Source of the DNA: Rhynchonema sp. JSB1_4
Lineage: Eukaryota; Nematoda; Chromadorea; Monhysterida; Xyalidae
Length of the DNA stretch: 64,000 nucleotides
Assembly: GCA_030248065.1 (NCBI GenBank)
Contig: JASAMV010008659.1
Coordinates: 1-64,000, forward strand
Reading direction: 5' to 3'
A program made the translations under genes and the position numbers. Positions 6,001 to 63,955 of this stretch are shown here, piece by piece. The notes under the pieces were generated by a model. That model was not told the origin of the DNA and ran no database searches. It saw only the letters and a program-made list of their open reading frames with translations. Numbering within the stretch: the first letter of the stretch is position 1; each line of letters begins with the position of its first letter.

Positions 6001-8268
6001 GCTGGTTACCGCACCGTAATTAACAGCGCACAGGTCCGGTTCGCTTCGCACAAAAATCTCATCTCGTAATAAATGCAAAGAATGTGAGGTTCTGTTCTTC
6101 CAAACAATTGTACCATTACCATTTTGCTATTTTGCTGCGCTGTAGACGACGGCAGCCAAGTGGCGTCGCGCGTAACGCAGGACACGAGCAGCCAAGCGAA
6201 CGAAAACCAACAGAAAGTCATGCGGTCACTGCCGGAAGAGTCGAAGAAGAAAATCCAGGAACAAATCGATGTGTTCAAGGTGCGTACTGGCACTTTTTTG
6301 TTTGTTTGTGTTTGCTTTGTTTTATTCATTCTTTCCATTTTTTTGTGAACTTTGACGTTTCGAGCCTGAATTTTTTCCAATCTCACATCATGAAGCGTAA
6401 GAGAACTGGCCGGTAAGCACTTGCATAGTTTTATTTAATAGGCCCAGGCCCATATGAAACATCAGCCAACGAGCTGTGTTGATTTGGCTGCGCAATGCCG
6501 ACTGCATGCTTGTGTTCTGTGTGCAGCCAGTGCACAACTCTTTGGCAGTTGTTTCACCCACTTCACGTTCGTCTTGTGAATCCGCGGGGACCAAAGGGCA
6601 TACATCTTATATATCCAGCTTTTGAACTCTATTTTTCTTCCGATAGTTTTGACATCGAATTGGCGAAATTGAATCAAGCAAGTCTGGCATGAAACGTCGC
6701 CTAATTTGACGTGCAGGTTGTGCAAAACAAATTCGAACGTGAAGTTGCCAAATGGGACGACGCCGGCAACGACATTATTGTGCTCGCCAAGTATATGTGC
6801 ATGATCATGATGGAAATGACCGATTTCACCAGGTTTTTTTCTCAATTTCTAGCTTATTTTCTGTTTTTAGGTCTTGCACTTTTCGCCATTTTCTCTCTAA
6901 CCCTATTCCCTAATCCCAGAGGTCGCGGCCCCCTCAAGACCACAATGGACGTGATCGGTGCGGCCAGAAAGATCTCGGAAGCCGGCTCCAAGCTAAACGC
7001 ACTCGCACAACAAATAGCCGACGAATGTGTGGAGTCCGAGACGAAGAAAGACTTGTTGGCGTACATGCAACGTATTGTGCTGCATTGTCATCAGTTGAAC
7101 ATCACGTCTAAGGTTGTTTTGTTTTGCATTGGCGCACGAGAAATCGTCAGCAGCAAACTCACAAAACTGATCCGTAAATCCGTACCATGAAACATTTTCT
7201 CGTGCAACCTAATGGTCTTTATACAACAAGCCGCATGTGTGTGTGTGAGAGAGAGAGAGTGGCTCATGCAAATGCTGCAACAGATCATCGTGAGTGCTCA
7301 TTCACTTCTAAAAAACATAAAAGAATGCCATCATCAAAACAAAATAACAAGTTTAAAATGAATCAGCCATTGTCCTTGATAATTCAGGTGAAAGCCGACG
7401 TGCAACAAGTGGGTGACGAGCTGATTGTCAGCGGCCTGGAGTCGGCCATGTCGCTGATTCAAACGGCCAGAAATTTACTAAACGCCGTTGTGCTGACTGT
7501 CAAATCGGCGTACATCGCGTCGACCATGGTTAGTTCGGGCGGGTGTTGAACTGCTCCTTGACATAAACATGTATATTTGACTTGAAACAAGCAACAACTT
7601 TCATCAGTTCTCCGTCAAAAGCGGCTGTTTGTTCATAGTAAGCTGGTGATGATTGATTGAACGTATCTACATATTTGGACTGTTTTTAGCTTGTTTTTTT
7701 GCCACGTTTTTGCTCCAGGGAATGTTTTTTGTTCTCACTGCTCCTCTTCAACCGAGATTTTTGTGTCCCAATTCTTTTCACTTCATTGTTACTCCAGGTC
7801 CAGATTCGTTTCTATGTTTTCTCATTGTTGTCCCCATTAGGTGCAGGCCATTTTATATCGTTTCACTTATTGATTGCTGGAACGGTGTTGTGTGTCAACC
7901 CCATAGTAATGAAGGCAATCTCCAGAGTAAAAAAACCGTAAAAACCTAGCTACAAGGGAGGGGCTCAATTTTTTTCACTAGCGAGCTCCATTTAGGTTTT
8001 TACGGTAACTGCCAGATATTTATTATTGCATTTGTAAAAATGGAAAATATCTCTGCATTCCTTTCAGTACAAAGCCAAGGGTGGTCAGGCCGGTCAGCTG
8101 GTTGTGTGGAAGATGCGCGCGCCCGAGAAGAAACCCCTGATGCAGTCGGGGCCACCGCCCCAGACCCCTGCCGCTGGGGGCGGGAAGGCGCACGGCATCA
8201 TCAGACGGGCGTCGAATAGAAGAGAAATGCCTCCGATCAAGGCTCTGGCTGAGTTTAATGCTGCTTGA
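1..8268 (+). CDS. hmp-1: alpha-catenin, C-terminal ~804 residues (5' end outside window)
   Basis: Alpha-catenin links the cadherin/beta-catenin complex to F-actin at adherens junctions. Exons read by hand: 1-154, 605-702, 1143-1254, 2443-2545, 2623-2702, 2773-2881, 2939-3033, 3095-3225, 3480-3582, 3960-4052, 4127-4219, 4363-4464, 4699-4861, 5560-5754, 6146-6279, 6717-6832, 6920-7112, 7388-7528, 8068-8268. All junctions are GT-AG and keep phase, giving 805 codons including TGA. Recognisable alpha-catenin blocks include VKAARTLSAAVTRLL at the start, LDRTAGAIRGR and EFIDASGLVHEAIRDIRHA in the middle, and KWDDAGNDIIVLAKYMCMIM and QLNITSKVKADVQ in the C-terminal F-actin-binding (VH3) domain. The family is about 900 residues, so roughly the first 100 lie upstream. 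AATAAA at 8283 follows the stop. Symbol is by C. elegans orthology. The family assignment is certain; single splice sites could be off by a few bases. Confidence 0.96.
1634..2404 (+). CDS. Uncharacterised 256-codon frame nested in an alpha-catenin intron
   Basis: I do not recognise this protein. A single open frame lies on the same strand inside the 1.2-kb intron between alpha-catenin exons 3 and 4 and ends 38 bases before the next acceptor. It contains an internal duplication: residues about 110-136 and 163-189 share the pattern YDP-x3-K-x-YR-x2-LGP-x-ESL-x-V-x-QR. A cysteine cluster (CCHC) precedes repeat 1, and CPC follows repeat 2. No clear signal peptide or membrane segment is visible. 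The start is uncertain: a second ATG at residue 34 (about position 1733) may be the true one. Conserved residues between the two repeats argue for past protein-level selection. It could be a nested intronic gene, a retroposed copy or an alternative exon. Confidence 0.5.
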   Translation: MSYYAPVLPNFVFVVHASQATWHFILLTYAADKMNFSSERTCEIQISRNKSDCFDFPSETKAFANESAEIQRANLESRNPIVVAFDHDNTVPPNTNLASTRRCCHCKPHIEYDPTDKFYRVILGPDESLNVHQRGTKSSANKKDRNIEKENCGDQNRIDEPPVNYDPVAKLYRLRLGPNESLKVIQRATENVCPCRHGEISQMWIPSRTVGFTETKGDRYDGQEQEMVCSAESFINHVSKVDVAAYFYVDSTPLRH

Positions 8269-8282
8269 ATGTCACGGTTTGA

Positions 8283-8288
8283 AATAAA
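8283..8288 (+). other. AATAAA polyadenylation signal of alpha-catenin
   Basis: A canonical AATAAA lies 15 bases after the TGA at 8266-8268 and is the expected cleavage signal for the alpha-catenin transcript. From here to about 9357 I see only AT-rich intergenic DNA with no supported gene. Confidence 0.7.
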
Positions 8289-9357
8289 TAGTTTCGACAC
8301 CCCTATGTACAAGCACTGTATTCTTATCCCACAGCCACAACCCAATCACTGGTGTGATTCAAATGTGCACCTTTATGATTTACAGCACTATGCCACAATT
8401 TTAATTTTTGTCTCAAATTGCGTGTTCTTTCTCGTTGTTTAACCTACAGGTATACCCGAATGTTACACGTCGTGTGTTTTGTTGCCCTTTACGATGAGTT
8501 GTGCAATCCTCTTGTGCTGTGTCCCATCCCAATTCTGTCACGTTTTATGTCTGTGTGTGGGACCACGTGTTTCTTTATTTATCAATATTTATCGTTTTGT
8601 GTTTTTTAGCCGCAATTCTGTCGATTTGTGAAAATGTATGCCACAATTTAACTGTCGCTGATTATATCTCAGCGTATGTTTGTGCGTGTTTTTCTCTGAA
8701 TTTATACATTATTCGGGTGCTGTGCTATACAATGAACTTGTAATTCGGTGTAGGGAAACGGATTCCTCTAAATTCTTATCATTCCTACATTTTATATTTT
8801 AATGCGTGGTTTTATTACTTTTTGCGGTTTGTTCTTGCATCTGGTATCTTCCTGTGCACTTTTATGAACACTGCTATTTCATTGTGCGTGTATGATTCAG
8901 GCTACTCTATCCAAGTTTATCGATTTTAAAGCGTCTGTCTATTTTAAATTTGGACTTTATCAGCAATCACTTATGATTTCCTGGCGTACAAAATCAAAGC
9001 GAACAGATCTAGGTGTCGAACGAAATGGCTTATTGAGCAGTTTATGCTTCCAGTTACAACTTACTGTGACTTCCAGTTATTTAACTTCTAAAATGTACTA
9101 AAATACATATACATATCCGCAAATATCAGCCAGCAGTATCTCATTTACTTTTATTCAGTTTTGAAATTGTCAGACTTTAGCATTTTTACATGATGCTGTT
9201 TACATGTTTTCACTATTTATTGTAATGATTTCTCGCAGTGATAAATTGTATGAAGCACTACGTTACGGTAAATCGAACAAGATTTGCGATGAAGACCTGT
9301 TTATTCAAAATGTGCAACAGGCAAAGACAAAAAGAGAACACAACAACAAGCTCATTG

Positions 9358-9688
9358 TATAGTCCGTCCACCAGCTCATGGCACTTTGTGTTGCTGCTGG
9401 CTGGTTTGTTCCCTTCCTCCACGTTCTAATGAAAGAGAAATTGCGTGTGACCGATTTTGCAAAAAAACTGAAAAAATAATAATACGTGTCGAAAACGATT
9501 GAATTCGATCAAATTTAAAATTAAATTAAATTAAAATCTATAAAACACGTCGATTTCATAAAAACAGCAATTTAGGAGCAAAAATAATTTTTTTCGGAAA
9601 CTCAATTTCTCTTTCATTAGAATGTGGAGGAAGAGAACAAACCAGCCAGCAACAACACAAAGTGCCATGAGCTGGTGGACGGACTATA
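9358..9688. mobile_element. TA-flanked foldback MITE, full copy
   Basis: The ends are inverted repeats of about 85 bp running from TATAGTCCGTCCACCAGCTC to its reverse complement ending GGACTATA, with TA at both outer edges. Both arms contain the block AAAGAGAAATT or its complement. There is no open frame. Related copies lie at 36009-36235, 47528-47895 and 51834-52020, with a half copy at 51232-51460. A TA target duplication and inverted ends suggest a Tc1/mariner-type non-autonomous element; the superfamily is inferred. Confidence 0.8.
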
Positions 9689-9843: not shown

Positions 9844-10150
9844 TTAGAACGCGCACAAGTAGCAGGATCGGGCGCAGTAACCCGTCATAAAACGGGGGTT
9901 CCTGCTGCATTCACCCTCCCAAGCCCATTTGCCACAATGGACATTGAAATCTTGACACCGGCCTGGTGCGGCGGTCAACGAATGCGGAGGAAGACCGTTC
10001 AGAAACGGACTACACTGTCCACAACTGTACCGACACGACCGCAGCATGTACGCGGCATTGGCATTGCATTCCCCGCTCGCGGCCCACTGCGAACACGTTT
10101 CGTGGTGATCTTGGCAATAAGGTATCATTGCTGGTGGTCGGGGGAGGAGT
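9844..10150 (-). CDS. ShKT-domain protein, last exon (two ShKT domains)
   Basis: The minus-strand exon begins after a TTTCAG acceptor at 10151-10156 and ends at TAA 9846-9844. It encodes two complete six-cysteine ShKT domains. The first runs from YCQDHHETC to CRYSCGQC and the second from RCQDFNVHCGKWAWEGEC to CARSCYLC. ShKT domains occur in tandem in secreted nematode proteins such as tyrosinases and astacins, or alone as putative ion-channel-binding modules. The upstream exons were not found: a hAT-type MITE (10227-10741) and then the 10.7-kb composite element lie on that side. The gene may therefore be split by a very long intron or be a truncated remnant. It is called here as part of a secreted protein, not as a toxin. 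Confidence 0.75.
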
Positions 10151-10226
10151 CTGAAATTATCAAATAATGAATTATGTGGACATTGAGAATTCAGTGTTTG
10201 GTCTACATGGAGCGGGTGGTCCCAGG

Positions 10227-10741
10227 CAGGGTTGGGCAAAAAAAAACGACGGCGTTTTTTCTTAAAAAAAAACGACGTTTTTTTTTAAAAAAACGCCTGG
10301 GTCGTTTTTCGTTTTTTTTAAATCCTGAATTTCCTTGATTTTCCCTGATTTTTCAGGGAAAGTACCCTGATTACCAAGGAAAATCAATTTTTTGTCCCAT
10401 TTTTTTCAAAAAATTTTCGACCAATTTTTACTTTGTCGAGATACGTCGATATACGGAGTTTGACTTTCAGTGATGACCCCGGCCAAAGTTGGTCCCATGA
10501 TGCGGGTCTGATATGGGATCTTAACAACTCGCTAGAAAAGGGTTGAAACCCGTTTATTTTGCCTCAGAACACATAGAATTACTTCATTTAACCACGTTTT
10601 CTTCCCAACATGAACGTTTTCCAATTTTTTGGGGGGCATATTTTGGTCATCTGGGCGTTTTAAAAAAAACGTTTTTTAAAAAAAAAACGTTTTTTAAAAA
10701 AAAACGATTTTTTAAAAAAAAACGTTTTTTGCCCAACCCTG
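10227..10741. mobile_element. hAT-type MITE, complete, 8-bp target duplication
   Basis: The element starts CAGGGTTGGGCAAAA and ends with the reverse complement TTTTGCCCAACCCTG. It is flanked on both sides by the 8-bp duplication GTCCCAGG (10219-10226 and 10742-10749). An 8-bp duplication and CAGGG termini are hallmarks of the hAT superfamily. The interior is AT-rich with runs of CGTTTTTT and no coding frame. A near-identical truncated relative lies inverted at 50639-51056, pointing to recent activity. Confidence 0.93.
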
Positions 10742-11233
10742 GTCCCAGGTCGTACAATCGCTTTTTGCCATGCCCCAATCAACCCCAGAATGGGGCCATC
10801 AAAGTTGATACCGCTTTAACCACTATCCGCGAGTTGACCAAGTGGTCTATCACCGCAGCCTGATGTTTCATCACGTTATCAGCGTGTTACAAAAATGCAA
10901 ATCAATGCAATGCACTGAAACATCACCTGGCAGTGACCGGTGCATCAGGCAGACGTTGAGCCACGGGATTCGTCTGAATAGAGGCCAAACAACATACCAA
11001 AATGCCGATAGTCAATTCAAACGGGCGCAAAGAATCCGAAATCCCGGACCCCAACAAGCGCGAGGGAAGGCAAACCAACAAGCCGGGCAACACAGGGATT
11101 CCGTACACATTTGAAGTTTGAGTGCATACAAATGTACTCAAACGTACTCAAACTTGTTCTTATAACATTTGAGTATGACTCAAACTTGTTCCTTGCGCAC
11201 TCAAATGTGTTCAAACTTATTAGATATATGACC

Positions 11234-23770: not shown

Positions 23771-26700
23771 ATGCGTCAAATCACCCCGTTGCTATGCGTG
23801 TTTGGTGCGTTTATGGTCGATAGTTATCGTCTGACGAAAGAAACAGCGCCGTGCCACAAACTGCCATTTGGCAAAGACCACTACGTCGGCACCAATCAAT
23901 TTGGTTCGTTTCTTTTGCGATTCGTGTTGTAATTAGGACGCAACTGGCGCATGACGTGCCACAAAATCGGCACGACATCAACGGATAGCGTATAATGCTC
24001 TCCATTTATCGACCTTTCTCAGGGATGGAGGGTTGGGTCACTCTGCGACTGAGATGTTTGACCGCCCGGTTGGACTCTGCACCCAGGGGAGAACACTGCT
24101 AAATCTGCCATAGACCTAACGGGGTGACAGACAACTTGGCGCGTTGTATGCGCGTTTCTGGTTACTATAACTGTCCGCTGGCTGTAGATGGGAATAAAAT
24201 AGCCATGGCTAAACATTAACGCTTCCTCGATAAGGAAACTGGAACGAAACGCCGTGCAAATACAGTCAACACACCCGCTACAGTAAACAGATAGGCAATG
24301 ATGCACCTCAGCTCTGGTTCTGACCACTTTGTGTTATTGACACCACGTTGACCAAAAAGGCGTTTCAGATGGCAAACCCCTTTGCTACGTGAAAATGCCG
24401 GCGCAGAAGCACGCGGACGCCCTGAAAACGTGCCGGGAGCAGATGGGCAAGGCCGGGCATCCCTATGATCAATTCTGGGCACCGGGAACGTTGGCACGAC
24501 TCAATTACCATTCCTTCAATGGGTTCCTTCGAAAATTTGTGAGTCTAAAGGAAAACATTTTCTCCAACGAGGCCTGGCACCTCGCCTCGCCCATCTGTGA
24601 AAGCAGGCCGCAACGGGCAAAACTCACTGCTGTTACATTGTTTCTGCGTAACAAAATCACGTTGGATTTTTTCAATCTGTCCACGTAAAATGCTATTGAT
24701 ACCGTAGGAAGCCACCGCGTGACAAAAGCACGTGAAACATCTGTATAACCTATTGCACGCGCAGAGTTGCACCAAACTGTGGCTATCTGATTCGGGCGCT
24801 AGTCCCCCGTACACCTACCGACCGTGGCTGTGCGACAAACGGCAATGGCAGGAGGAAGCGACGTACGACCCTATCGCACTTGAATTCGTTTGTGAATTTC
24901 GACCATTAAGTAAGTCAACAGTTTGTGGACATAGTAAATTTTCGCGAGGCTCAATTTGTGCGGTCACGCAGTGGTGGCGTTGAGATCAGGTATACCTTAT
25001 GTATGTAAATGAAAAATACCCAAAATAGAGTCTATGAGCCAAGTGCAAGTGGCATACTCCACGAAGCCGGATTCCCGACACTCTATGTATACTCCGCATA
25101 GAATTTACTCTGCACTCTCATTCACTGACTTTTTGATACGGACGACGGGTCTGGATTGGTCGACCCATAACTGAACAGATGTGCTCGCCCGCTTACGAGT
25201 GTTAAACCCAAGAGAGAACACCTCGAACTGATTATCCTGCCAGAGCAGACGGGGGATTTCACATAGAGCGATATCAAACTTGGTGATCGGATCGGATCGG
25301 ACCTACTGCCTCGGTCATGTGCGACTTTTGCACGAAAATCAGAAATTTAGTGATGCCACTTATTTCGACCAGCTTATAGCAGTTGTTCACAGACCTAAGA
25401 TAAACAACCTTTACGGTGGTCGAAATTAGTAGAGATCCAATCCTTTCCGATCACCAAGTTGCATATCGCTCAATATGCCAATACAGGCGCATGTGTTGTA
25501 CTGTTGTACAATTATTATCCCTGGTTCGTGACTATGGTCAGTATGTATAAATGACGATTCACGTTTGACAATCTGTTCAGCATTCCACAATGTATCCCCC
25601 AAGTGCACAAACTTACCGAATCTGGATTCGTTTGACGAGGTCAGGTACGCGGAACACGCAGCCAAGTCAGGTTGGTGGCGCGCCACGATTTTGTTAATGT
25701 TTGCGCATTGCACTTGGAGGAAAATGCCGCTCTGCAGGAGAGTTTACACGTTGTCGGGGAGTGAGGAGTGCGCAATATTGTTCACTGTTGATATCACAGG
25801 GGCAACACGAAAATCATCACTATACGAACATAGAACATATTACGATAGCCAACTCAGGGCTAATGGTGCATAGTGGTCAAAGTGGGCAACTCTTGTCGTT
25901 CAAAGCAAGCAGCCCTCCTAAATGAGCGCGAGAGATTACGTGGCGTAGGCTTGAGTCATCAAGGAGAGTTGACGACGGTACTATAAAAGCCCAATTTAGC
26001 TAAAGTGCCCATGTGCATGAAATTTATTTATGCTTTTGGGTGGTTCGCTCCACCTTGCTTCAGTTTTACAATACCAAATCTCGCTGCAACACGCAGGTGA
26101 ACCGCCGATTTGCTACAAATTTGTGGTCCAGAAATGGTTCTATTTTCGGCAGAGCCGAAATTTTTGCTACAAAACCAACGACCACAACGAGACCTCCGGC
26201 TATCAATCCGCATTGGCCAAGGTCAATGACGACGGAACGGATGAATGGCTGCATAAACTGGTCGGTGTCGATTTTTCGCAATTCTATAGTAAATTTCTAA
26301 TTTCGCTGCCTCATATATTTTACAGAAGCAGGGAAACCCCCGTTCGAAGTCGAGGCAGGCAACAAGCTCAACACACAGTTAACAAGCCACGCAGCTGGCT
26401 TGTGTGCATTTCGAATGTTTCAGTCACACAAGCTGTGTGTGCCGGCTGCGAGGCTTGTTGACCGTGTGTTGAGTTTGTTGCCTGTCTCGACTTCGAACGG
26501 GAGTTCCTCTGCGTTTATAAAAATGTATGAGGTATCTATAATTAGAAACTTACTATGCGAGCCGTATCAATCAACTTTAGGCTAATTTATTGGCATGGAC
26601 ATGGGCTTGGGCATATAGGCAAATTTTGGTTAGCTGCATTTTGTGATGGAGTCATCTTGGTGTAGCGCGCTAACAACTTTCACACTTGTCGAAACTATAG

Positions 26701-42600: not shown

Positions 42601-45600
42601 GCTGGACAGCAACCCCAGAGGAAACCGTCGAATTTGCATTCGTAGTTGATTGGACACACCTGAAATGAGCACGGGAAGCTGGCTTGCTGACTTTTCACAA
42701 CCTTTTACGTTGCGCGGTGCACTTGAATTATGTACCTGATTTGCATTGGTACCGGCCCCCGAGCACCGGTAGTACTTTCCGTAACTGTCCTTGTAAGCCA
42801 AACCCTGAACGCATTTCGGCTCACCGCCCATGCCCACACAAGCGGTCTGACAGTCGAAGAGACTCTTGAAATTGTTGCTGTTGCCACCGCAACCTGAAAG
42901 TTTTTTTGTTTTTAAATTTTTCCAACACTTGTTTTTTCTGTCTCAACTGCGGGACACAGACCTGAATACTGGAACGACACGCACTCGCCCGTTTGTGGAT
43001 TGTGCCAGTAGCGAGTCGTCCATTGGTTGGAACAGTAACCGACCACCATTGCTTGCGAACACAGTGTTTCTGAAAAGAATCAGTCAAAAATTGATGAATC
43101 ATCGATCAATTAATTGCCCTAATTGGGGGCAAAAAACATTTTTAATCCCCACTGCGGGCCAAAAACTGGTTTCAACACGAATCGTAATGCAGCTCTACCA
43201 CAATTGCCTTTCTTTCCTGATTAGGGCCAAAATGGTTTATGACCCCTTTTTGGCTTCGAGTTTCTTCGGCTCCAATCAATGATAAATTACATAATCAATC
43301 AATCACAGTAAATCAATAAATAAATCAACGACTAACGTGCTCGCGGACAGCATATCTGCAAATTCGATGTTGTGCTCGACGAACATTGGTACGAAGTCGG
43401 GCAATCGGTGTCACTCGAACATCGCTGGTTCTGACCGGTCGGCAGTTTCAATGGCTGACCGTTGGTGCACAACTCTGAAACATCACACCACATGCTGCGC
43501 TGAGAATTCGAACCTTCTTAATGCTCGCATTATTGTGCGCACTGCAAACGTGTGAACCACTGAGCTGCGCAAACGCTAGACAAGCTATGAAGGTAACCTT
43601 GCTGGCAGAAATTCTGACAATCCGATTGCGATCCGAAATTATTGAAATTGCCGCCCGCGCCCAGATACGTGAATTGGTCGCATAGTCCAGTGGAGGGATT
43701 GAAGAAATAACGCAGCGCGTTGGACGAGATTGTGTAGCCCTGCAAAATCAGGCAACTTGTGGAAATATATATGTACCTTGAAATCACATGAAAGAGAAAA
43801 TATATTAACCTGGAATCCTGGGTCGAAAGCGGTCGGTGTGGTGACGTACGTACTTCGAGCGCCCAAGAATCCGCAAACGAACTCGGTTTTCCCACAACAA
43901 ATGTAGTTGGAACCGATCCGATCACAATTGTGGTTACTGTCGCAATTATTTGAGGACGCTGAGCAATAGGCCAGACCGCCGGTCGATAGTTGACTCGTGT
44001 ATTGGGCCGCCGAGCGGCCGCACGCTGAAATGAAATGGCACTGATGATGACCTGTGGCACCTTCAGGCTGTGAGAAAACCAAAAGTGACTTTTCAGAATA
44101 CTACATGTACTACCTCACGCATATAACGAAACTATTTTTCAGCTGGCGCGCGTGCACAGAAAGAGGCACTAAACCATACACCTTACGAAACTCACAATCC
44201 TGACAGTAGGAACGACAATGGTCGACGGTGGCAAAGTTGTTGCCGTTTGTGTTGGTGATATCGGCGCCATTTGGATTGAACGTGAACTGCGAACAGGAAC
44301 CGGACACACTGTTGAAGTAGTAACGCTGCGTGACTGCGGCGCCCGTGCCTGCACCGCCGGGACCAAGTGGCGAACTGCAGGTTAATGCTGGAAAAAATAG
44401 TGCTTGATGGCTTCATTTAAAGCTGATATGGTTGTCGTTAACGGAACTGCCTGTGTGATTCGTGCAAACGCAGCTGGCTGGGTGTCTGCCTGCAATGCAA
44501 AGGGACGCGTGCAAACTATAGCGCGACAACAGCAGTTCCGAGAGCGAATAAATGAATACAGGGTCGCCCCATAGCCCATTTGGGTCATTTACGACCACAG
44601 ACATCCTGCTGCATTTGCATCAAACACAGGCAGTTATGTGTTGACAACGTTATGAACCTTATTTCATTCAATTTACGAAAAACACTTTTTGTATCAAACG
44701 GACCTCTACTCGGACAGCAGACGCCACTGGCCGAAAGAGCAGCGTTCGGAATACAGTCGTACATCTCTTGATGTCCGTTGACCTGTGTTGCAATCCGAAA
44801 TTCAATATGATCTTTTCAAAAAAATTAACAGAAAGAGAAACACATTAACATATATACGAACGGGGAATGTGTTTGTGGTTCCAGCCGTGCAGCCCGATGC
44901 CACAGTGCACGCTTGCAAGCCGTTTCCAGTCAGATGCATCAGTGCGTTTAGTGCGGTCGCCGCTGGGTAGTCGGGCAGCGGGCAGTTGGTTCCGCCTGGA
45001 ACGGGGATTGGTTTCCAGTTTTATTTTTGCTCAATTTTTTCCGGAAAAAATAGACTTTTTACACCCACCGATGAGCACACAAACACGTCCGTCCTTGGTG
45101 GGCACATCGTAGTACCCGGTGGCACAAATGCACCGACCGCTGCTGCACGTGGCACCCGGCCAAACCGAGGAACATTGAACATTGTAGAGACAGCCGGAGT
45201 TGCCCGGTTGGATTTCTGGAACGTAAAAATTATAAAACAATGTCACGTGATCTGGTCGCCAGAACGGAACGTCGCGTGTTTCTGTCCGTTGCAGTTTGGC
45301 GACCGCTAAATTTCACTAAAAATGAGCGCATCCAGACCGCGCAAACGCGCGCGATCCGATTTGTCGCGAAAGCAGAAGTAAAATTGCAGCAATTTTTGGT
45401 GATAAGTTGATAACCAGTCTTATGTTCTCTCCAAAGTGTGGACTAATTCAGGGCCCACTTTGACCACTGTGTGCCCTAAAAACTGTTGAAGGATCTGTTG
45501 TAAATGTGAAACATCAGCCAACCAGAATGACTCACTCTGATAGCACACATTGTTGTACTGCACCGAGCTGGACGTACACGCACACACACCGCTGCTGCAG

Positions 45601-45661: not shown

Positions 45662-46570
45662 CTGAATGTGCAAGAGAAGGTTCAGGTGATTTTGTGATGT
45701 TTCACAAATGGTTGTCACATTCATGGATATAAAAGTGCCGCACGTATAAATATGTACGTACATTATTTATTTTGATTGCGACTCGATTACTCTACCTATA
45801 TCATAGTAGAATACCACGACAATGTCTTTTGTTCAAGTTGATTATGCTCATACAGTATGTATGTGCAGCTCTAATGTCATCCTCAGTTTCTCATACCACC
45901 AGTTTGTCGCTTGAACCGTTCCCCCGATGCAACGGCGATCAGCTGAAGAAGCGTCGCGCAGAAATTTGTAAAGGGCGTCAGCCGGATTCTCATGTTGTTG
46001 AATTTGATTGATTTTGGTGCTGAAAGAAAAACAGTCAGCTGTCACGTATTTCATAATTGTTGGTTATTGTTATCATTATTTATTGTTGTTACAGAAAAAC
46101 ACCGACGACGATATAGATTAAGAAAACAAGCCACTTCAATTGATGGACGGCGGCTTTGCGCTGTTATTCACTGAAAAACCAGATTATACTGCATGTCGAA
46201 AATCACAGGATGCGCTACATTGGGCCCGCACACAAAGCGGTAACAGATCAAAGCTGACTGTTTAAGAGCAAAAGTGAATCTCTTGCTTTCGACACACACA
46301 CACAGGTCCTGTGACATACAGAATGTGTCGACTGTGTAAAGACAGCCGGGCAGGATGCGGTTTTGAAATGATAAAAAAACGCGAAAAGTGATACTTTTGA
46401 CAATGCTTTTTCAAACGTTTGAATTTTGACGGATTAGGATGGATCGGCAGTTTGGGTTGAATGATAAAAAGCCTCATTGCAAAAAGGTTTTCGCAACGAA
46501 TAATGTCAGGTGAATGCCAGCTACTGAAAGGTCCGGGGACATCGTCGCGCGTATTTACAACTAGCTCGGG

Positions 46571-51800: not shown

Positions 51801-54800
51801 GCGCCTATAACATGCGCACTAAAATTAATCGTGTATAGTCCATCCACCAGCTCATTAGACGCAGTTGTGGTTCCACATGTGTTTCGAAACATTTCGAAAC
51901 CAAAAGAAAGAGAAATTGGGTATGTTTATACATTGTTGATTTCTCTTTCTTTTGTTTTCGAAAACTTTCGAAACACGTGGAACCGTAACAGGTGTCTCAT
52001 GAACTGGTGGTTGGACTATACACTACTGTCACCAGTGCGTGTACCCCTTTCCGTGATTCGTACTGTAGAAGCGTTTTCCGATTTCGTCCCATGTTTTGCA
52101 GAGCGCAAGAGAAACAGGCCGACAGTTTGGACGTGAGTGCGGCCTGGACGAATCCGACGTCGGACACGTTCCCATTCGAATCGATCGGGCGTCTGTTGCG
52201 CAAACAACGATTCATGAAACGCTTCGTTCGCTTCATCACACGCAACGCGCTGCCGCTCGCCCACTCGGACAGAGCCGGTGCGCGCGCGATGTGAAACATC
52301 AGACGATAGTTTGCCCTTTGATTATTATGTTGTTCGACACCTGATTTCACGGACGGGTGGTGCACGAGGACATCGCGTTCGATACGAGTAAAGTTAAAAA
52401 TAGCAAGTATACTTGGATTTATTTCGTTTTTTGCTTGCAGTTTTTGGCTAGAGCAAAAAAAATGACAAAAAGTTTTTTCAAATCAATATCCATGCTAGCA
52501 TCTGTAAAACATCGGAGCCACTGGGCATACTCGAATAAAATGGCCACGTAAGGACCTCGGTGGATTATTCAGGCTTTTTCGGTAATCTTTCAGGCCTGAA
52601 CGCATCGATCGAGTACGCAATTAATGAGCTCTTCTCCGAGGTACCGCCGGCTCCAGAACTGGACCCGACGGCCGACCCCCTTGTCTTGGACCGGACACCA
52701 GTGATTGTGCCTGATCAAACAAGGCTGCTGTTCGTGTTCACACATTACGCTGTTGAACAGTGGGAGATTGAGGCGTTCCTGTCGATTGAGTGCTCACCGG
52801 TGTGTTTTGTGGTTGAAAAAAACTAGGCTACTAACAGCACACACACACAAAAAATGTAAACTGATCTACAAAACTAAAATTTTAAACCATTTTTGTTATT
52901 TATTCGTTGACGAATGACATGTTCGATCCGAAAGGTAACCCGTAGCTGTTTGAACTCAACTCACTTTTTTAATGGCGGATCCAGCTTTTGGCCAAGGGAG
53001 GGGCCAAATCCAAAAAGTCATTTTTATCCAGTGCTTGTTCCATTTTTGAAAAATCATTTTTATGTAGTGCTTTTTCGAATTTCGCGCTTTTAACGCCAAA
53101 TATTACAGAAAATGTGACAATGCGCGCGAAGCGCGCGAAATTTGGCACTTTTTGCGCGCGCGAGAGCCAACATTGGGTGATATTTTCGAAACGGTGTAAA
53201 GGTAAGGGAAAAGGGGGACAACAAGAAAAAACAAAACCCCCCCCCCCCCCCCCCCCCCCTCCCCCTTAAAACCCCTGATTGAAAATTGGTGTGCTTGACG
53301 CGCGAAGCGCGCGATTTTTGGACTTTTGAAGTGTATCAGTGTGAAAATCCTGCGATCTAGGGGTTCTTTTTCCTTCCTTCCGAAACGGTGGCCCCCTTCA
53401 GAGGCCAAATGGACCAAAGGTGGGGCCATGGCCCCTGTGGCTCTTCTGGATCCGCCCTTGAACCTTTTATAGGTGGATGTTAAGCGGACACACTGTAAAC
53501 ACATTTGGATGTAATAATTTTGAAAGCAAGTCCGTTGGCATGGACTCGCCTAAAGCAAGCCGCAGAGTTGGTTTGGCAAGCTTGTTTAAGGCAAGTTCAT
53601 GCCAGAGCGCCTGCCCACAGAGTTGACACGGCCCATTGATGATACACGATCTAATGCGGATCTGTCAATTGGCGTTTTCATGGCTCCATTCCGCAAATCC
53701 CCAACTTCGTAGAACTCAGTCGGACTCTTTCCTCAACCGAATGCGGGGTCCGATCATTAAAGTTTTATAGCGGGATTGTGTTTTCAGGTACTCACCGTTG
53801 TCGTACTGTTCCCGGACGCAGACCAGGACTGTTCGTCGACGAACACAACGTTGGCGCTGATCAACAGTTATCTGGCCGGCAAGCACGAGGGGACGTTTGC
53901 GTTTTGCGCATCGCACGCACAAGATGACCACGCGGATGACGAGATACAGCACGTGACGCAACGCGTTGAACAGAATTTGGCGACCCAGCAAGGTTGATAA
54001 GAAAACTAGATTTCTTAAAAATTATGAAATCTGGCAATAAAACTTTCAGTCTATAATTTTTTTAGTTCGTTAACTGCCGTTACTGGGCAGAATTCCCCCA
54101 ACTTTGGCCTGCTGTCCGTGAATTTTTTATATTGCTGACGGTAATGGGTGTTTTGGAACGTGCTCAATCACAGTGATCGGATCGCATCTGCCTTGCTGTT
54201 CTTTGGTCCACATTGGTCTAGTGTTAAACGAGCGGAAAAAAGTTCCCAAGCAGCCCCCAGACCAAAAGTGAGTCCACTAGTGCCTATACGCTCACTCAGT
54301 TGTCAGTTGGTTGTGAAATTTTTTAGTCGACGTCATACTCACAATTTCCGTGTTGATCTTGTGCACAGGCAGCCGAATTTCCTGCAGAAATGAAGATTTT
54401 TAGATCTAAGCCTAAGCGCTGAAAGGTTTCAAAAAATTTTTGTAGTTCCACAACAAAACACAATTCCCCCATCCTGCGCAGAGGTGTACGAGCGCTGCGA
54501 GCTATTCTATGTGCCACCCACAGCGGTACCCCTTGATCTATCGAGTGTGACCATCCCGTTTGCGGCCAGCCTTGGTGGTTTCGTGCTCGTTTTCGTGATC
54601 GGCGGCCTGGCGTTTCGCGGCTACAAACTGCGAAAGGCGAAAAATGCGCGATACTCCATCAGAGCTGGGCTGTTTATGAACTATGAGGTGGGTGTTGTTG
54701 TTGTTATGTCGCCCAGAGTGTTGTCAGAGGTGGCAGTTGCATTGAAACTTTTAAAAAACTCCGGCGCTAAACTTCTAACCGAGAAGGTTGGCCTGCCAAG

Positions 54801-55052: not shown

Positions 55053-55090
<38 letters not shown>

Positions 55091-56208
55091 AAAAAAAAAA
55101 AAAAAACAAAAACAAAAAACAAAAACAAAACCAAAATATGTACGTATTCGTATTCGTATATGTTCGCAGCAAATGGTCTCCAACCGCAATCAAGCGTCGG
55201 CCATTCGTGCGTGTGTTAACGAGGAAGCGCACGCCAAACTTGCTGCCAACGCCGACCGCGTCGCGGGCGAATTGCGCCGAGGCAAACGTCAAGCGGCGCG
55301 AAGGACCAAATCGGATCAGAGCGAGCGGGGCAGCGCCAAAGGACGAAAGCGGGGCACGCGCAGCAGGGCATCGACCGCCGACCCGCCATCACGATCCAGC
55401 ACCGGTCGAAAGGGTCGTGGTCGACAGAGGTGAGCGATTGTACACTCAGTCCCGTATTTGACAACGTTTTTGCACAAATTGCGTGTAGTGTGAGTGTGTC
55501 CGGCTGGAGCCTAAGCCCAAGCCTATAAATAGGTCAAATATGCTGGGCCTGCGGCCGGGCCTGAAAAGGTCGGGCCGGAACTTCCGGGCCTGAAAAGGCC
55601 CGAAAAATAGATTGATGCACTGATGTCATGGGGCTGACAGGCTCAGTCATACACACACTGGCGATCACTTGTATCAAAACGAAACAACTTTAAAAAGATT
55701 GGATTGTCTTAAATTATTAAATTAAATTTGCAAATTTTTTTAATGAAATATCAATATTCAAATTTTATAAAATTTATATTTCAGCAACAAAAGTCGGACC
55801 GAACCCGATGTTTCAACAACTGTGGTCATAGACGATGATACCAGCACCAACCAGCATACGAGCAAATCACCTGCTGTGCCGCATAAACGCAACAGCACGC
55901 TGCGTCGCGCGAGGGGATCGGGGTTCAGGAAACAGAAGGACAGTTTTTCTGAAGCAGATGAACCGTCGGATGCGTTCAGGTGGGCGTTGCGCAGTGGGCT
56001 AGCAGCAGGTGCTGTCATGTGGAAAGGAACGGGTTCGAAACAGTGCCGAAAGAGGCGCTGATACCGTGTTTTTGCATACAGAGCATTTGCCCCCTTTCCT
56101 CCGAATGGAGCCAATGCAGACCCCTTGAGGGGTCGCATAAACCGTTTGAAAAAATCCGAAGAGTTAGTGACCTACGCAAACAGCAAAAATCATTTGTCAC
56201 TGGGTTAA
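48828..56208 (+). CDS. Type I membrane protein with VWA-like ectodomain and basic cytoplasmic tail
   Basis: Eight exons keep phase: 48828-49039, 52102-52277, 52594-52799, 53788-53992, 54482-54687, 55170-55429, 55785-55979, 56082-56208 (TAA), 528 residues. A signal peptide (LFVLFSLLCTVCDA) is followed by REVAFIISGSANFGG. Further on come a helix block GLNASIEYAINELF, a strand block TRLLFVFTHY and LTVVVLF. This order resembles a von Willebrand A fold, but the metal-site DxSxS is SGSAN, so the call is tentative. A membrane span (FAASLGGFVLVFVIGGLAF) is near residues 291-310, followed by RGYKLRKAK. The tail of about 210 residues is rich in K, R, S and T, with GRKRGTRSRAS and GRKGRGRQR. The last intron is mostly tRNA-like; reading through it instead gives an alternative stop at 56061. 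I do not recognise an orthologue. Confidence 0.82.
49784..50082 (+). repeat. GCTAGCTAGCTTTCTTGC repeat cluster
   Basis: Three occurrences of GCTAGCT(A/G)GCTTTCTTGC-type sequence at about 49786, 50006 and 50053, with CCGG- and ACC-containing neighbours, inside the 3-kb first intron of the VWA-like gene. It may be a microsatellite-derived or transposon end repeat. No coding frame. Confidence 0.6.
50390..50470. mobile_element. hAT-like terminus, fragment
   Basis: CAGGGCTGGGTTAAAAAAAAG resembles the CAGGGTTGGGC end of the hAT MITE family and is followed by T- and A-rich sequence. No matching right end is visible before the next element at 50639. Confidence 0.4.
50639..51056. mobile_element. hAT-type MITE, right end truncated, inverted relative to 10227
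   Basis: Starts CAGGGTTGAGCAAAAAACG. Its interior is very close to the reverse complement of 10227-10741, sharing blocks such as TTTTCTAG and TACGTCGATATACGG (either strand). It ends in CGACCCAGGCG-TTTTTTT without the terminal CAACCCTG. It lies in intron 1 of the VWA-like gene. Confidence 0.85.
51232..51460. mobile_element. Half copy of the 47528 MITE, inverted
   Basis: About 220 bases match 47690-47900 in reverse complement, including CATGAGACGACTTATTTTGA and the end GAACGATGTTGCTGTTCGC. Only one terminus (degenerate) is present. Confidence 0.75.
51834..52020. mobile_element. TA-flanked MITE, compact complete copy (187 bp)
   Basis: TATAGTCCATCCACCAGCTC at the left; the right end reads GAACTGGTGGTTGGACTATA. 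The inner arms TTTCGAAAC and AAAGAAAGAGAAAT are also inverted. The outermost TA is duplicated. This is the cleanest small form of the family. It lies in intron 1 of the VWA-like gene, just before exon 2. Confidence 0.85.
53228..53275 (+). repeat. Poly-C tract
   Basis: About 30 C residues with a few interruptions after AACAAAACC, inside intron 3 of the VWA-like gene. The translated proline run is not a gene. Confidence 0.8.
55045..55135 (+). repeat. Poly-A tract in intron 5 of the VWA-like gene
   Basis: About 90 bases, nearly all A, followed by CAAAAACAAAA units. It could be the tail of a retroposed element or a simple repeat. The lysine-rich frames are artefacts. Confidence 0.8.
55979..56048 (+). 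other. tRNA-like sequence filling the last intron of the VWA-like gene
   Basis: Starts with GGTGGGCGTTGCGCAGTGG (A-box-like) and contains ACGGGTTCGAAAC (B-box-like); a T5 run follows at 56069-56073. Its second base is the first base of the intron (CAG then GTGGGC), and the acceptor GCATACAG lies just after the T-run. The arms are imperfect. Confidence 0.6.
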
Positions 56209-56428: not shown

Positions 56429-56667
56429 ATGGAGTTATTCTTGTCCTCATGTAGACGTTTTGTCCGCATGGACAAAACATTTTATCGCTCATATTTTGCA
56501 ATTGGTACAGCAGTAGCTTCGAAAATCGTAACAGTTGTTCATCAGGTCTAGGGGAACAACTAATATGCTGGTCAAAGCTGATGTTTCAACAATTGAGAAA
56601 CTACGGGCGGAACAAAGTTTTGTCCATGCGGACAAAATGTCCACCTGAGGACAAGTATAACTCCACC
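56429..56667. repeat. Foldback element between VWA-like gene and sarcoglycan
   Basis: Left GGAGTTATTCTTGTCCTCAT and GTTTTGTCCGCATGGACAAAA; right GTTTTGTCCATGCGGACAAAA and GAGGACAAGTATAACTCC. Arms of about 55 bp are nearly complementary around a loop of about 130 bp that holds a GATGTTTCA motif. No gene is seen between 56209 and 57492. Confidence 0.8.
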
Positions 56668-57492: not shown

Positions 57493-60400
57493 TCAAATCG
57501 CAGTGCTACTACCAGTGCTGGCCTGTTTCGCCATTGCAGCACCCCTGTTTCGCCGCATGGGTGGTGTGGGCGCATCAGTAGTGCCTTCGGCCAACACACC
57601 ATCCGATCCCATGGCCCGCGTCGGACGAAGGTTGTTACTCGGGGCACCACCGAACTCCTCAGCGGCCACCAACGTGTCTTGGTCGCTGGCAAAGGGATAA
57701 GTTAAACACAGAAATCGAATTGCACGGACCGGTCTCGGTCACTCTGAATTAGGCTCTACGTTTGAAGTTGTTCTCAGATCGCTAACAGATACAAATATAG
57801 CCTATTTAGCAAGCACTCCGGCATATCCGAACCTTTCATTCGATCCCCTCGGCTTTGTGACGTCATCTTCTTGTGCAGCCGGGTCAATGTACGGCTCAAG
57901 GCTGTTGCCGCGCACGGCAGCCGCCTCCGCCACCGTTTGCTTGCCAACTGAACCCGTGTATGGGGGTGGAGCATCTGGAGTAACAATATTAAGGTGATGT
58001 TTCATTTTTTGAATATCTGTAAAACATCGGTCTGTTTTGCATTACATTGTACGAAAAGGGAACCGTTGCGGAGCAGGAGGAAAAACTGCCACTTTGGTAC
58101 AGTGAGGAGTTCTACAGTATGTTCTGCTGTCTCATCAAAAACAATTCCACTCAAACTAAAATTCACCTTGAGCAACAGGCATCATGCGTCGTCCATTTTT
58201 CGGCACCAGGAATGCCCTGATACCCGACTCATCAGCGCGAGCGAATGACTGACGTTGCGCACTCAGGTCACGCAGTTTGTGTTGCCCGCGACGCAGTGAC
58301 ACGTACTCACGCAGTTGCTCCCTGCAATATATGCAGTACGAACATTTCGTAAATGGGAAACATGGGCCGATTCAATTCTGTGCTTTAAAAAAATCTAAAA
58401 AATAAAGTAATTTTTTGTTACCCCGGTGTTTTGTAGTCGCGCCATCTCTGACCCTCGCGATGACCGAAGAAGATCAAACTGAGCACCAGTAGAAGAAAGA
58501 CGAGAATCACCCCGGGGATGGGGAGGACCTAAAAAATTTGTTCAAAAAACAGTGTCATTTTTCAACAATTTTTGTTTAAATTCTGACCATAATCCAATCA
58601 GCGAAATACTCGCGTCGCAGCTCCTTTTTCGTGTGTGGCTGAAAGGATGAAAATGTTTTTTTTGAAAAATATTCCACATTTTTTCATAAAAAGCGAAAAA
58701 AACCAGAACCTGAAACCGCGGTGGTGGCACCTCGGGTGTGTTGATAAGCAGGGTCTTGTTGTGCACGCCAAAGTCGCTGTACGTTAATGCATCCACACCC
58801 ATGTCACTTGACATTATGCCGCCGTATTTTATGGTCGCCCGTTTGCTGCGTAAATCGATCGTGACCTGAATCAAGCGATTGATGACTGATGATGACCTGG
58901 TGCACCAACTGCCTGTGACAATACAAAAGAGTGCATAACGTCACTGTTGTGCGGTACCATGGTGCGCGGTTGTCTTAAAAATCGCTTCGGTTAAAATTGA
59001 CACCGCATTATTCCTTCAAAAAACTCAATACACTAACCACTTCAAATTTGCACCAATCGATTTCGTAGTACGGCTTGAACTGTTTATTGAGCGGATAGAG
59101 ATGTGCCTTTGCCTTGCAGTGCTCCATGTTGTTGCGAATGTCTTCGGCCGTCGTGATCACCGAGCGCGGGAAACTGGACTTTGTTGCGATGCTCACCACC
59201 GTGCTGAAACATTAGTTAGAATAGAATGGAACCCTAAGCTCGCAGCTGCAGACAGTGTAATCCATCCTGCAACCCGTGGCATGGGTACGGTCGATAGATG
59301 ACGTCACACAGGGTTGCGTGACTCGAACGTTAACATGAGGGCGATCTTAGCGATCCAAACCGTGTACCGATCTCTGCTAATTTCGGTGCCAGGCTTGAGG
59401 ATTTTATAAAAACACAAAGACACCGCACAGTTTGCGATTCCAAAATGAAGCACGCACCCATCTTTGCTGCTCTGACCCGTTCCCGCTGTGACGCTGCGTT
59501 TGTGACGCGCGGCCGGTTTCATATCACGAATGTACGGAAGAGAAAAACGACCGCCAAAAGCAGACCTGGTAAAAAGTTTATTAAGATTTGAGAAAATCAC
59601 TTTTTGGAAAGATAGAGCCCCAGGTATTTTTTTACCCATATTCATGTGACCATCGCCGACATCAACACAGCCCCATTATGTCGTAACATGTGCATGTTTC
59701 CTGGCGCTCTACGTTGACGGCTGAACCGGTGATTTGAAAATATTCATTTGCTGTTTACCTGATCGTGGTCATGAGGTGCGCGAGACGTCCGCTTTCTTCG
59801 GTCAAAAGTTCGTGCAGTTCATAGTTCTGTACCCATAAATGTGCAAGTTGACGAATGAGACCAGTGCCCACGTCGACTGGAAACATAAAAAAGTATAATT
59901 GATTTAAAAAATTCAAATGATCGAAAACTTTTTAAAGCAATTTTGCGTAAATAAACACACAATGCACACCTGGTCCGTCGGCCACTTCAATTTTGTATTC
60001 CTTTGTGTTCATTTCGTACGAATCGTCGAGGCGGGCAATCACCTACGAGCCGACAAAAATTTCCAACAACTTTATGTAAACAAGTTTGATCAATTTTAAT
60101 CAGAGGAAATCTCATAATCGTGTCTTGTTGGCGATTTGTCTTTCAAAATTACCTGAATATGATACTGCCTAACTTCAGTGTCAGGCACACCAAACAGGTA
60201 CGCAATGCCACGGTGTTGTGACTCGGCCACATGCATCCAGCCTGGCAGCGTTGGACTGCCGACAGCCGAGGCCAGCCAGGTGATGTTGGCTGAAAATTGA
60301 ATAATAAAAATTATTCTAAGGATACCATTTTCTTTCCGGCGATGCAATACCGGGTGACCGCGTGTTTTAGCATAAACGACCAGGAAAAAAGCAAGGTGGG

Positions 60401-60913: not shown

Positions 60914-60928
60914 TTTTTCAAACTTTTT

Positions 60929-60931
60929 CTG
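60929..60931 (-). promoter_or_regulatory. Candidate trans-splice acceptor of sarcoglycan
   Basis: CTACTTTTCAG ends 15 bases before the ATG at 60913 with no in-phase upstream exon, the normal placement of an SL acceptor in nematodes. Confidence 0.6.
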
Positions 60932-63430: not shown

Positions 63431-63685
63431 GGCCTGGCGCCTCACCCGTCTGTGAAAACAGGCCGAAACGGGCAACGCACTGCACACACATTCCTTATCG
63501 ACTTTCATGCCCGGTTTTTGTCGACATCGCTTCGAAAATTCCACCCCTGATCCTGGCTGAATGCTTGGGTTTGGTCAGCAAGCAAGTGTCTAGCCGAAAT
63601 TTCCGCAATAGATTTTAACTTGACATTGTGTTTGTCACCTTCGTAATGCAGTGAAACGAATTTATAGAGTTTATATTGATATTTT

Positions 63686-63688
63686 CAG
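63686..63688 (+). promoter_or_regulatory. Candidate trans-splice acceptor of the small secreted protein
   Basis: GATATTTTCAG ends 12 bases before the ATG at 63701. TTTTCAG so close to a start codon is the classic nematode spliced-leader acceptor. Confidence 0.65.
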
Positions 63689-63700
63689 ACCAATTTCAAA

Positions 63701-63955
63701 ATGTTCAAGTTCATCCGGACACTATGTTTGCTGTTTATTCTATCACACGGTCTTGCGTCAAGTCGCATCATTCTCACAGGTTTCATCACAATGAAACATC
63801 ATCTGTCAAAAAAACTATTCGAATTTGAGCCGAACGCTTGGTTGGACAAGGACGAAAAAGAACAACGTCAACGAGCAGAACAGAAACGAGCGCTGGGATC
63901 GCGATTGAACACACAAAATCTGGACAAACTTTTTCTGCTGCGACTGCGATTTTGA
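63701..63955 (+). CDS. Small secreted protein, 84 residues
   Basis: I do not recognise it. The ATG follows a TTTTCAG acceptor at 63686-63688. Residues 1-20 form a signal peptide (FIRTLCLLFILSHGLAS). The remainder is charged, with DKDEKEQRQRAEQKRA (helix-forming), and ends LDKLFLLRLRF before TGA. The C-terminal RLRF recalls RF-type neuropeptides, but no glycine for amidation and no dibasic cleavage sites frame it, so a peptide-hormone call is not supported. It is near the window edge and further exons are possible. Confidence 0.5.
   Translation: MFKFIRTLCLLFILSHGLASSRIILTGFITMKHHLSKKLFEFEPNAWLDKDEKEQRQRAEQKRALGSRLNTQNLDKLFLLRLRF

What the first reader, a model, noticed from the sequence alone, without database searches (positions are those of the whole stretch)
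6455..63800. GATGTTTCA is strongly over-represented: possible dispersed, intron-resident 21U-RNA (piRNA) promoters
Counted by eye: 22 exact GATGTTTCA/TGAAACATC 9-mers against about 0.5 expected in 64 kb on both strands, and about 36 ATGTTTCA 8-mers against about 2. The sister 8-mer CTGTTTCA, the C. elegans form, occurs only about five times here, an internal control against base-composition effects. C. elegans 21U-RNA genes carry an upstream core CTGTTTCA about 40 nt before the 5' U. Here the first base is A, with G before it. Sites lie on both strands regardless of host-gene direction, in introns of alpha-catenin, lectin, Kunitz/lustrin and sarcoglycan genes. Several have a T- or A-rich patch 25-40 nt downstream (31985, 32806, 45507, 57996). 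This would be a variant motif with a scattered layout, not a cluster.
Basis: partly seen in the sequence, partly recalled or inferred. Interest (0 to 1): 0.9.

Follow-up and report, generated by a model that had tools for sequence, protein, structure and literature searches.

The report
Dispersed half-PSE promoter motifs in nematode
A short DNA word scattered tens of thousands of times through a roundworm's genome matches one half of its small-nuclear-RNA promoter, the same kind of element that worms such as C. elegans use to make their genome-guarding piRNAs, but the expected piRNA start signal next to it is missing.

Summary
The over-representation is real. GATGTTTCA occurs 22 times in the window against 1.3 expected and 46,647 times in the 204-Mb assembly against 1,330 for the reversed word. 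The core is nearly invariant: of 27 one-base variants only AATGTTTCA is clearly enriched. It sits in a weak longer consensus, about TGGCTRGCTGATGTTTCACA; the flanks are otherwise mostly unrelated (168 of 177 distinct sites). The genome's own U1, U2 and U6 promoters carry the same element 43-55 bp upstream (18 of 20 read). U1/U2 promoters add a second box, GAAYGACT, 13 nt further on; the dispersed sites lack it. So the motif is a "half-PSE", half of the SNAPc-type snRNA promoter element, the type from which the nematode piRNA Ruby motif is thought to derive (PMC6436959). The genome is a nematode outside Rhabditina (one-gene tree) that encodes a PIWI-clade Argonaute. Best reading: SNAPc-type piRNA-like promoters without a fixed 5'-U. 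No RNA data were available.

The parts
6455..6463 (-). GATGTTTCA core, context GTTGGCTGATGTTTCAT, just after the alpha-catenin exons read
10862..10870 (+). GATGTTTCA core; faces the site at 10916 (convergent, 54 bp start to start)
10916..10924 (-). GATGTTTCA core, convergent partner of 10862
24733..24741 (-). GATGTTTCA core
30641..30649 (-). GATGTTTCA core
31985..31993 (-). GATGTTTCA core
32806..32814 (-). GATGTTTCA core
36806..36814 (-). GATGTTTCA core
37814..37822 (+). GATGTTTCA core, context CAGCTGATGTTTCACA, beside the lustrin frame 37905-38192
38186..38194 (-). GATGTTTCA core, context GGCTTGCTGATGTTTCACA, at the upstream edge of the lustrin frame 37905-38192
38750..38758 (-). GATGTTTCA core, divergent from 38800; between lustrin frames
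38800..38808 (+). GATGTTTCA core, divergent from 38750; between lustrin frames
39034..39042 (-). GATGTTTCA core, between lustrin frames
42330..42338 (-). GATGTTTCA core, near the Kunitz frame 42526-42942
43476..43484 (-). GATGTTTCA core, between Kunitz frames
45507..45515 (-). GATGTTTCA core, context TGGTTGGCTGATGTTTCACA (close to the extended consensus)
45696..45704 (+). GATGTTTCA core
52292..52300 (-). GATGTTTCA core
55807..55815 (+). GATGTTTCA, probably a chance copy in an exon (open frame after TTTCAG)
56580..56588 (+). GATGTTTCA core, context AAAGCTGATGTTTCA
57996..58004 (+). GATGTTTCA core
63792..63800 (-). GATGTTTCA core

Best explanation
The dispersed word is the core of a half-PSE: the part of the SNAPc-type small-nuclear-RNA promoter element that holds GTTTC, without the second box that the U1 and U2 promoters add. 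Tens of thousands of such half-sites stand in the genome of an apparently early-branching nematode, on both strands, beside unrelated sequence. The likely mechanism is that the snRNA-activating complex (SNAPc) or a germline variant of it binds each site and starts RNA polymerase II about 43-47 nt downstream, the distance seen at this genome's U1 and U2 genes, making short, non-conserved transcripts that feed the encoded PIWI protein. This would be the dispersed (P-type) form of the nematode piRNA system with one difference: the RNA 5' end is not templated by a U at a fixed distance, so 5' ends would be chosen flexibly or made by later cutting. SHOWN: the enrichment, the near-invariant core, unrelated flanks, the match to the snRNA promoter core, the missing second box, a PIWI-clade gene, SNAPC1-like exons. 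INFERRED: SNAPc binding, transcription, piRNA identity, host intron location.
For: 46,647 copies against 1,330 for the reversed control; CTGATGTTTCACA 3,141 against 2; GGCTRGCTGATGTTTCAC 289 against 0. Of the 27 one-base variants only AATGTTTCA is clearly enriched (36 against 8.0 in the 263,552-bp sample), so this does not look like a decaying repeat. Of 177 distinct sampled sites 168 are unrelated to each other (less than 50% ungapped identity over 225 bp). Among 20 snRNA upstream regions the motif model's best hit lies at a set place in 18: U1 6 of 7 at -43/-44, U2 8 of 8 at -45 to -47, U6 4 of 5 at -54/-55 (20 of the 28 snRNA hits were fetched). One U2 promoter reads TGGCTGGCTGATGTGACAG, the extended consensus letter for letter up to GATGT. 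Box GAAYGACT follows 13 nt after the A of the core in 14 of 15 U1/U2 promoters (0-2 mismatches), but within 12-15 nt in 0 of 179 dispersed sites with at most 1 mismatch and in 6 with at most 2 (controls 4-5). PIWI-clade gene: joined pieces from C1663 score 136-180 bits against the 11 best chains, each named a Piwi, and at most 71 against any Argonaute; three contigs hold like-placed exons, and the fetched 4.5 kb holds one GATGTTTCA and two AATGTTTCA. SNAPC1-like exons on three contigs. Published parallels: Ruby motif derived from the GTTTC half of the SNAPc motif; P-type intronic piRNAs; ATGTTTCA works as a core in C. elegans.
Against: No enriched T column and no AT-rich region downstream among 168-179 unrelated sites. 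The best hints are weak: YRNT with T at +43 (20 against 12.2, best of 28 offsets); among 3,136 dinucleotide tests the strongest were TA at +18 (20 against 7.3) and AG at +47 (21 against 8.3), and AG at +47 stayed at 21 when 11 more sites were added. P-type species show strong pausing signals (PMC6436959), not seen here. 46,647 sites is far above the 3,082 scanned in Plectus murrayi. No RNA, ChIP or expression data. AATGTTTCA, nearly as numerous, has a different context (34 unrelated sites) and partly belongs to a repeat, so not all copies of the 8-mer are one thing. In single promoters the match to the motif model is not striking (empirical p 0.016-0.26 for the 18); constancy of place carries the argument, and several snRNA copies are near-identical.
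Confidence: 0.5

Rival explanations
1. The sites are bound by SNAPc or by another sequence-specific factor that shares its recognition word, but make no small RNA: an architectural, regulatory or meiotic element (like 'extra TFIIIC' sites elsewhere, recalled), spread through the genome.
For: Strict core, unrelated flanks, and no start or pausing signal at a fixed distance. The second PSE box, present at the U1/U2 promoters, is missing.
Against: The core is that of the snRNA promoters, and the dispersed GTTTC half-PSEs described in nematodes in the papers seen are piRNA loci (PMC6436959). A PIWI protein is present.
Confidence: 0.3
2. Ordinary P-type 21U-RNA loci exactly as in Pristionchus or Plectus, with the 5' U at a fixed distance.
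For: Motif core, dispersed layout, both strands, PIWI gene; a slight YRNT excess at +40 to +50 (150 against 134.5).
Against: The T fraction at 36-56 nt downstream never exceeds 0.318, no higher than in any of six control windows (0.318-0.341). In simulation a U in half the sites with a spread of up to 3 nt is detected in at least 99% of runs. It could still hold for a minority of sites.
Confidence: 0.1
3. The word is a remnant or terminus of a mobile or simple repeat family.
For: AATGTTTCA is partly part of a dispersed repeat (divergent pairs 26 bp apart: 9 pairs among the 100 places listed; sequence). 9 of 177 distinct sampled GATGTTTCA sites had flanks related to another site.
Against: 168 of 177 distinct sites share nothing beyond the element; one-base variants are not enriched, as decay of a repeat would predict.
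Confidence: 0.05

Closest known systems
Ruby-motif (type I) 21U-RNA / piRNA promoters of C. elegans and other Rhabditina
   Same: Holds the TGTTTCA/GTTTC core; ATGTTTCA is a known working variant there (PMC3597512, passages). Single sites, unrelated downstream sequence, PIWI-clade Argonaute in the genome.
   Different: Scattered rather than in two chromosome-IV regions; T and G (or, in another context, A) before ATGTTTCA; CTGTTTCA not enriched in the window; no fixed 5'-U position seen; more copies.
P-type dispersed piRNA loci (Pristionchus pacificus; bipartite motif in Plectus)
   Same: Dispersed on both strands, some within genes; close kinship of piRNA and snRNA promoter motifs (PMC6436959).
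   Different: No pausing-type AT signature; one half of the PSE is conserved, while Plectus keeps two motifs together; 46,647 copies of one 9-mer against 3,082 sites scanned in P. murrayi.
Proximal sequence element (PSE) of U1/U2/U6 snRNA genes, bound by SNAPc
   Same: Same core and part of the 5' flank, same orientation.
   Different: Dispersed sites lack the second box GAAYGACT found 13 nt on at U1/U2, lack a conserved RNA downstream, and carry G at the position where U1 promoters mostly carry T.

Membership tests
Nematode Ruby-motif piRNA (21U-RNA) loci | upstream GTTTC-containing core motif enriched genome-wide | tested here: met
Nematode Ruby-motif piRNA (21U-RNA) loci | 5' U (YRNT) at a fixed distance of about 42 nt downstream | tested here: not met
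   no enriched T column in 179 unrelated sites, YRNT 150 against 134.5 at +40 to +50; a minority of sites cannot be excluded
Nematode Ruby-motif piRNA (21U-RNA) loci | low-melting (AT-rich) pausing region after the RNA | tested here: not met
   A+T 0.51-0.56 in every 8-nt bin from +36 to +116
Nematode Ruby-motif piRNA (21U-RNA) loci | PIWI-clade Argonaute encoded | tested here: met
Nematode Ruby-motif piRNA (21U-RNA) loci | PIWI-bound 21-nt 5'-U RNAs from the loci | not testable with these tools
   no RNA reads available
P-type piRNA loci | scattered through the genome, on both strands | tested here: met
   23,427 forward and 23,220 reverse; moderately uneven between 10-kb tiles (variance/mean 1.96, 25 tiles)
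P-type piRNA loci | within introns of active germline genes | tested here: inconclusive
   four window sites lie between frames with verified lustrin/Kunitz domains; no gene set or expression data
SNAPc proximal sequence element | core shared with U1/U2/U6 promoters of the same genome | tested here: met
   18 of 20 regions read
SNAPc proximal sequence element | second conserved box 13 nt after the core (as at U1/U2 here) | tested here: not met
   at 14 of 15 U1/U2 promoters; 0 of 179 dispersed sites with at most 1 mismatch, 6 with at most 2 (controls 4-5)
SNAPc proximal sequence element | bound by SNAPc | not testable with these tools
   no ChIP data; SNAPC1-like exons found

The most novel reading that the evidence does not exclude
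An apparently early-branching nematode outside Rhabditina (and, on the COX1 evidence, probably not Plectus) runs a genome-wide system of about 45,000 solitary half-PSE promoters that supply PIWI with RNAs whose 5' ends are not set by a templated U. It would be a form of motif-driven piRNA transcription that came before, or lost, the fixed 21U start, and another case of the GTTTC half of the snRNA promoter being set free from its partner box.
Probability: 0.35. Interest if true: 0.8.

Novelty: new variant of a known kind. Interest (0 to 1): 0.62.

Why it matters
It would extend motif-driven, one-promoter-per-piRNA transcription, reported in PMC6436959 for Rhabditina and two Plectus species, to another nematode lineage. 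It would also help to show which steps of the pathway (half-PSE promoter, dispersed layout, templated 5' U, pausing signal) are old and which were added later. The half-PSE test used here gives a simple way to look for such systems in unannotated nematode genomes without RNA data.

Tried and rejected
Fixed-spacing 21U signature: tested on 69, 97, 132 (98 G-type and 34 A-type), 168 and 179 sites; none found. Companion motif up- or downstream: no k-mer or column clearly stands out (one column, +62, passes chi-square 11.3 outside -9 to +10, about two expected by chance). Composite spacing between neighbouring sites: close pairs (<60 bp) 8 against 2.5 expected for [AG]ATGTTTCA in the 263,552-bp sample, but the pairs 26 bp apart are one repeat, and no GATGTTTCA-GATGTTTCA pair under 60 bp occurs among the 98 places listed on C2-C19, though three do on the window's contig. 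The four convergent pairs at 53-54 bp were left as a curiosity. Treating AATGTTTCA as the same element: rejected for now, because its context differs. Clade I placement from the best hit (Trichuris): replaced by the tree, which puts the query with Dictyocaulus and Diploscapter to the exclusion of Trichuris at 95/95; this is one gene with long branches and an odd query composition, and no Clade III or IV row was in it. COX1: among the best 120 of 7,998 scored proteins the best is an unnamed metagenome protein at 80%, the named ones are about 66-70% and none that I saw is a nematode, so the species stays unknown; that it is not Plectus or a well-sequenced lineage is inferred from this, since such COX1 records (recalled, not seen) should have ranked higher. 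Literature: the listings (20 of 47 papers; 18 of 18; 20 of 80; 15 of 18; 15 of 37; 12 of 13) showed, by title and start of abstract, no report beyond PMC6436959 of PIWI or such a motif in an early-branching nematode; the listed papers were not read, save passages or sections of PMC6436959, PMC4323106, PMC3597512 and PMC6468775.


Full report
OBSERVATION. The window holds 22 exact GATGTTTCA (7 on +, 15 on -) against 1.3 in dinucleotide shuffles, 37 ATGTTTCA against 5.8, and 6 CTGTTTCA against 3.5. The window is bases 1-64000 of contig C5316 (112,382 bases) of a 203.9-Mb assembly in 5,747 contigs. Genome-wide, GATGTTTCA occurs 46,647 times, evenly on both strands, against 1,330 for the word read backwards. 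AATGTTTCA occurs 38,663 times against 1,974. TATGTTTCA, one base away, is close to its control, 3,960 against 3,401. Longer forms are more extreme: CTGATGTTTCACA 3,141 against 2, GGCTRGCTGATGTTTCAC 289 against 0.

SHAPE OF THE MOTIF. In 263,552 bases of contiguous sample (the window plus 20 fetched stretches) the nine core positions hardly vary. Of the 27 one-base changes of GATGTTTCA only AATGTTTCA is clearly enriched (36 against 8.0 expected from a third-order Markov model); the others lie near or below expectation, the highest counts being 13 against 11.3 and 9 against 4.5. In the 69 sites not chosen by any longer word, T precedes in 56, G stands at -3 in 35, C at -2 in 28 and C at +9 in 31. 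The larger set had 194 site windows, of which 177 are distinct (17 are exact repeats, mostly the same place fetched twice) and 168 unrelated (9 share 50% or more ungapped identity with another). It was partly picked by CTGATGTTTCACA, which biases -2, -1, +9 and +10. It adds weak preferences at -9 to -4, so the consensus is about TGGCTRGCTGATGTTTCACA. Outside -9 to +10 one column between -100 and +124 (+62) passes chi-square 11.3, about what chance gives. A decaying repeat family would show many one-base variants and related flanks; neither is seen. AATGTTTCA does not share the context (34 unrelated sites), and part of it belongs to a dispersed repeat with two divergent copies 26 bp apart, so I keep it apart.

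LINK TO snRNA PROMOTERS. Rfam models found 9 U6, 9 U2 and 10 U1 hits; I fetched the upstream 130 bp of 20 of these 28. A weight matrix made from the 70 unselected sites has its best hit at a set place and in the same orientation in 18 of the 20: U1 at -43/-44 (6 of 7), U2 at -45 to -47 (8 of 8), U6 at -54/-55 (4 of 5), counted from the start of the Rfam match, to within one base. The two that miss are one U6 and one U1 copy with no recognisable element. Some copies are near-identical (five U2, two U1, two or more U6), so the independent count is smaller. The empirical p values of the 18 are only 0.016-0.26, partly because real dispersed sites are in the background; the constancy of position is the stronger argument. 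One U2 promoter matches the extended consensus exactly over TGGCTGGCTGATGT and then departs (GACAG). In the U1/U2 promoters a second box, GAAYGACT, begins 13 nt after the A of ATGTTTCA in 14 of 15 (0-2 mismatches; the odd one is the U1 copy without the element); in the U6 promoters it is not at that place. Of 179 dispersed sites none has it at 12-15 nt with at most one mismatch, and looser matches are at control level (6 against 4-5 with two mismatches). The dispersed element is therefore half of the U1/U2-type promoter element.

GENOME AND PATHWAY. The window's alpha-catenin is closest to Trichuris muris, 58%, among proteins of about 271-861 residues (the tool's length limits). In a tree of 24 rows it lies with the three named nematodes and one metagenome row against all others (100/100), and with Dictyocaulus and Diploscapter to the exclusion of Trichuris (95/95); this is one gene, with long branches and an unusual make-up of the query row, and Clades III and IV were not sampled. 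COX1 is 80% identical to an unnamed metagenome protein and at most about 70% to the named animals among the 120 listed. I conclude only: a nematode outside Rhabditina, apparently early-branching. A Piwi-domain search gave 54 exon hits. Pieces from contig C1663 joined into 242 residues match Piwi chains first (136-180 bits for the first 11) and Argonautes far behind (at most 71 bits). A piece joined from other contigs matches Argonautes first, which serves as a contrast. Two more contigs, C3368 and C4595, hold like-placed hits and may be alleles or paralogues; they were not classified. The C1663 stretch carries one GATGTTTCA and two AATGTTTCA in 4.5 kb, about the genome's density, which argues mildly against contamination. 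SNAPC1-like exons lie on three contigs.

TEST OF THE 21U READING. In the C. elegans construct printed in PMC6436959 (passage) the 5' U lies 47 nt after the A of ATGTTTCA (counted), and the Methods give a 42-nt peak distance for each species. In this genome U1 and U2 start about 43-47 nt after the motif. In 179 unrelated sites the highest T fraction between +36 and +56 is 0.318; six control windows give 0.318-0.341. YRNT with T at +40 to +50 occurs 150 times against 134.5 expected, best at +43 with 20 against 12.2. Simulated insertion of a U in half the sites with a spread of up to 3 nt exceeds the control maximum in at least 99% of runs; for a fifth of the sites the test has little power. The AT-rich pausing region reported as strong in P-type species (PMC6436959) is absent. 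Among 3,136 dinucleotide tests the strongest were TA at +18 (20 against 7.3) and AG at +47 (21 against 8.3); the latter lies where transcription would start but did not grow with 11 more sites (21 of 179).

INTERPRETATION. The best single account is that these are SNAPc-type half-PSE promoters belonging to a dispersed nematode piRNA system, in which the RNA 5' end is not set by a templated U. It rests on the snRNA link, the unrelated downstream sequence (a conserved RNA product is thus unlikely), the PIWI gene and the published derivation of the Ruby motif from the same half of the same element. Transcription itself is inferred. The main rival, binding without RNA, explains the missing start signal better but leaves the snRNA match and PIWI as coincidence. 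I do not file the sites as 21U-RNA loci, since a defining feature was tested and not met; they may still work like them.

WHAT IS KNOWN. Dispersed intronic piRNA loci, the kinship of the Ruby motif with the SNAPc motif, and PIWI in plectids are published (PMC6436959: passages, outline and abstract, sections 9, 10, 13 part 1 and 30). Outside Clade V, Piwi was found there only in Plectus sambesii and P. murrayi. A review lists PRG-1, 21U-RNAs and the motif as largely absent outside Clade V (PMC6468775, passages). My searches of the open library (listings only) showed no report of such a motif or of PIWI in another early-branching nematode; subscription papers and preprint servers were not covered.

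Noticed in passing
29365-29399 (window); also C7:18280, C4:2768 and other places: A dispersed repeat with two divergent AATGTTTCA copies 26 bp apart, TGAAACATTCCACGTTAATAACAGGCAATGTTTCACGTTTACACCGAGC in the window; such pairs account for 18 of the 100 AATGTTTCA places listed.
   Followed up: partly
10862-10924 (window); L009 (C5316 about 66447); L025 (C7:7676); C22:19053: Four convergent pairs of [AG]ATGTTTCA with the same 53-54 bp start-to-start distance; the three that I read are unrelated in sequence.
   Followed up: partly
about 11500-20900 (window): Repeated frames SGRRSRRRRGHRGPDTGDFIRNGQ... at 11524-12531 (+) and 20567-20851 (-) suggest a repeat block; no GATGTTTCA lies between 10924 and 24733.
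   Followed up: no
L122-L129 (upstream of U2 genes): Two kinds of U2 promoter: five copies with GATGTGACAG-type elements (one of them GACGTGACAG) and three with ATGTTTCA-like elements that have TTTTCGTC further upstream.
   Followed up: partly
9844-10284 (window, minus strand): ShK-like (six-cysteine) domain frame, E 5.6e-16.
   Followed up: no
G000 C5596, C4861, C2656: Three contigs with SNAPC1-like exons; if paralogues and not alleles, they would recall the germline SNPC-1.3 of C. elegans.
   Followed up: no
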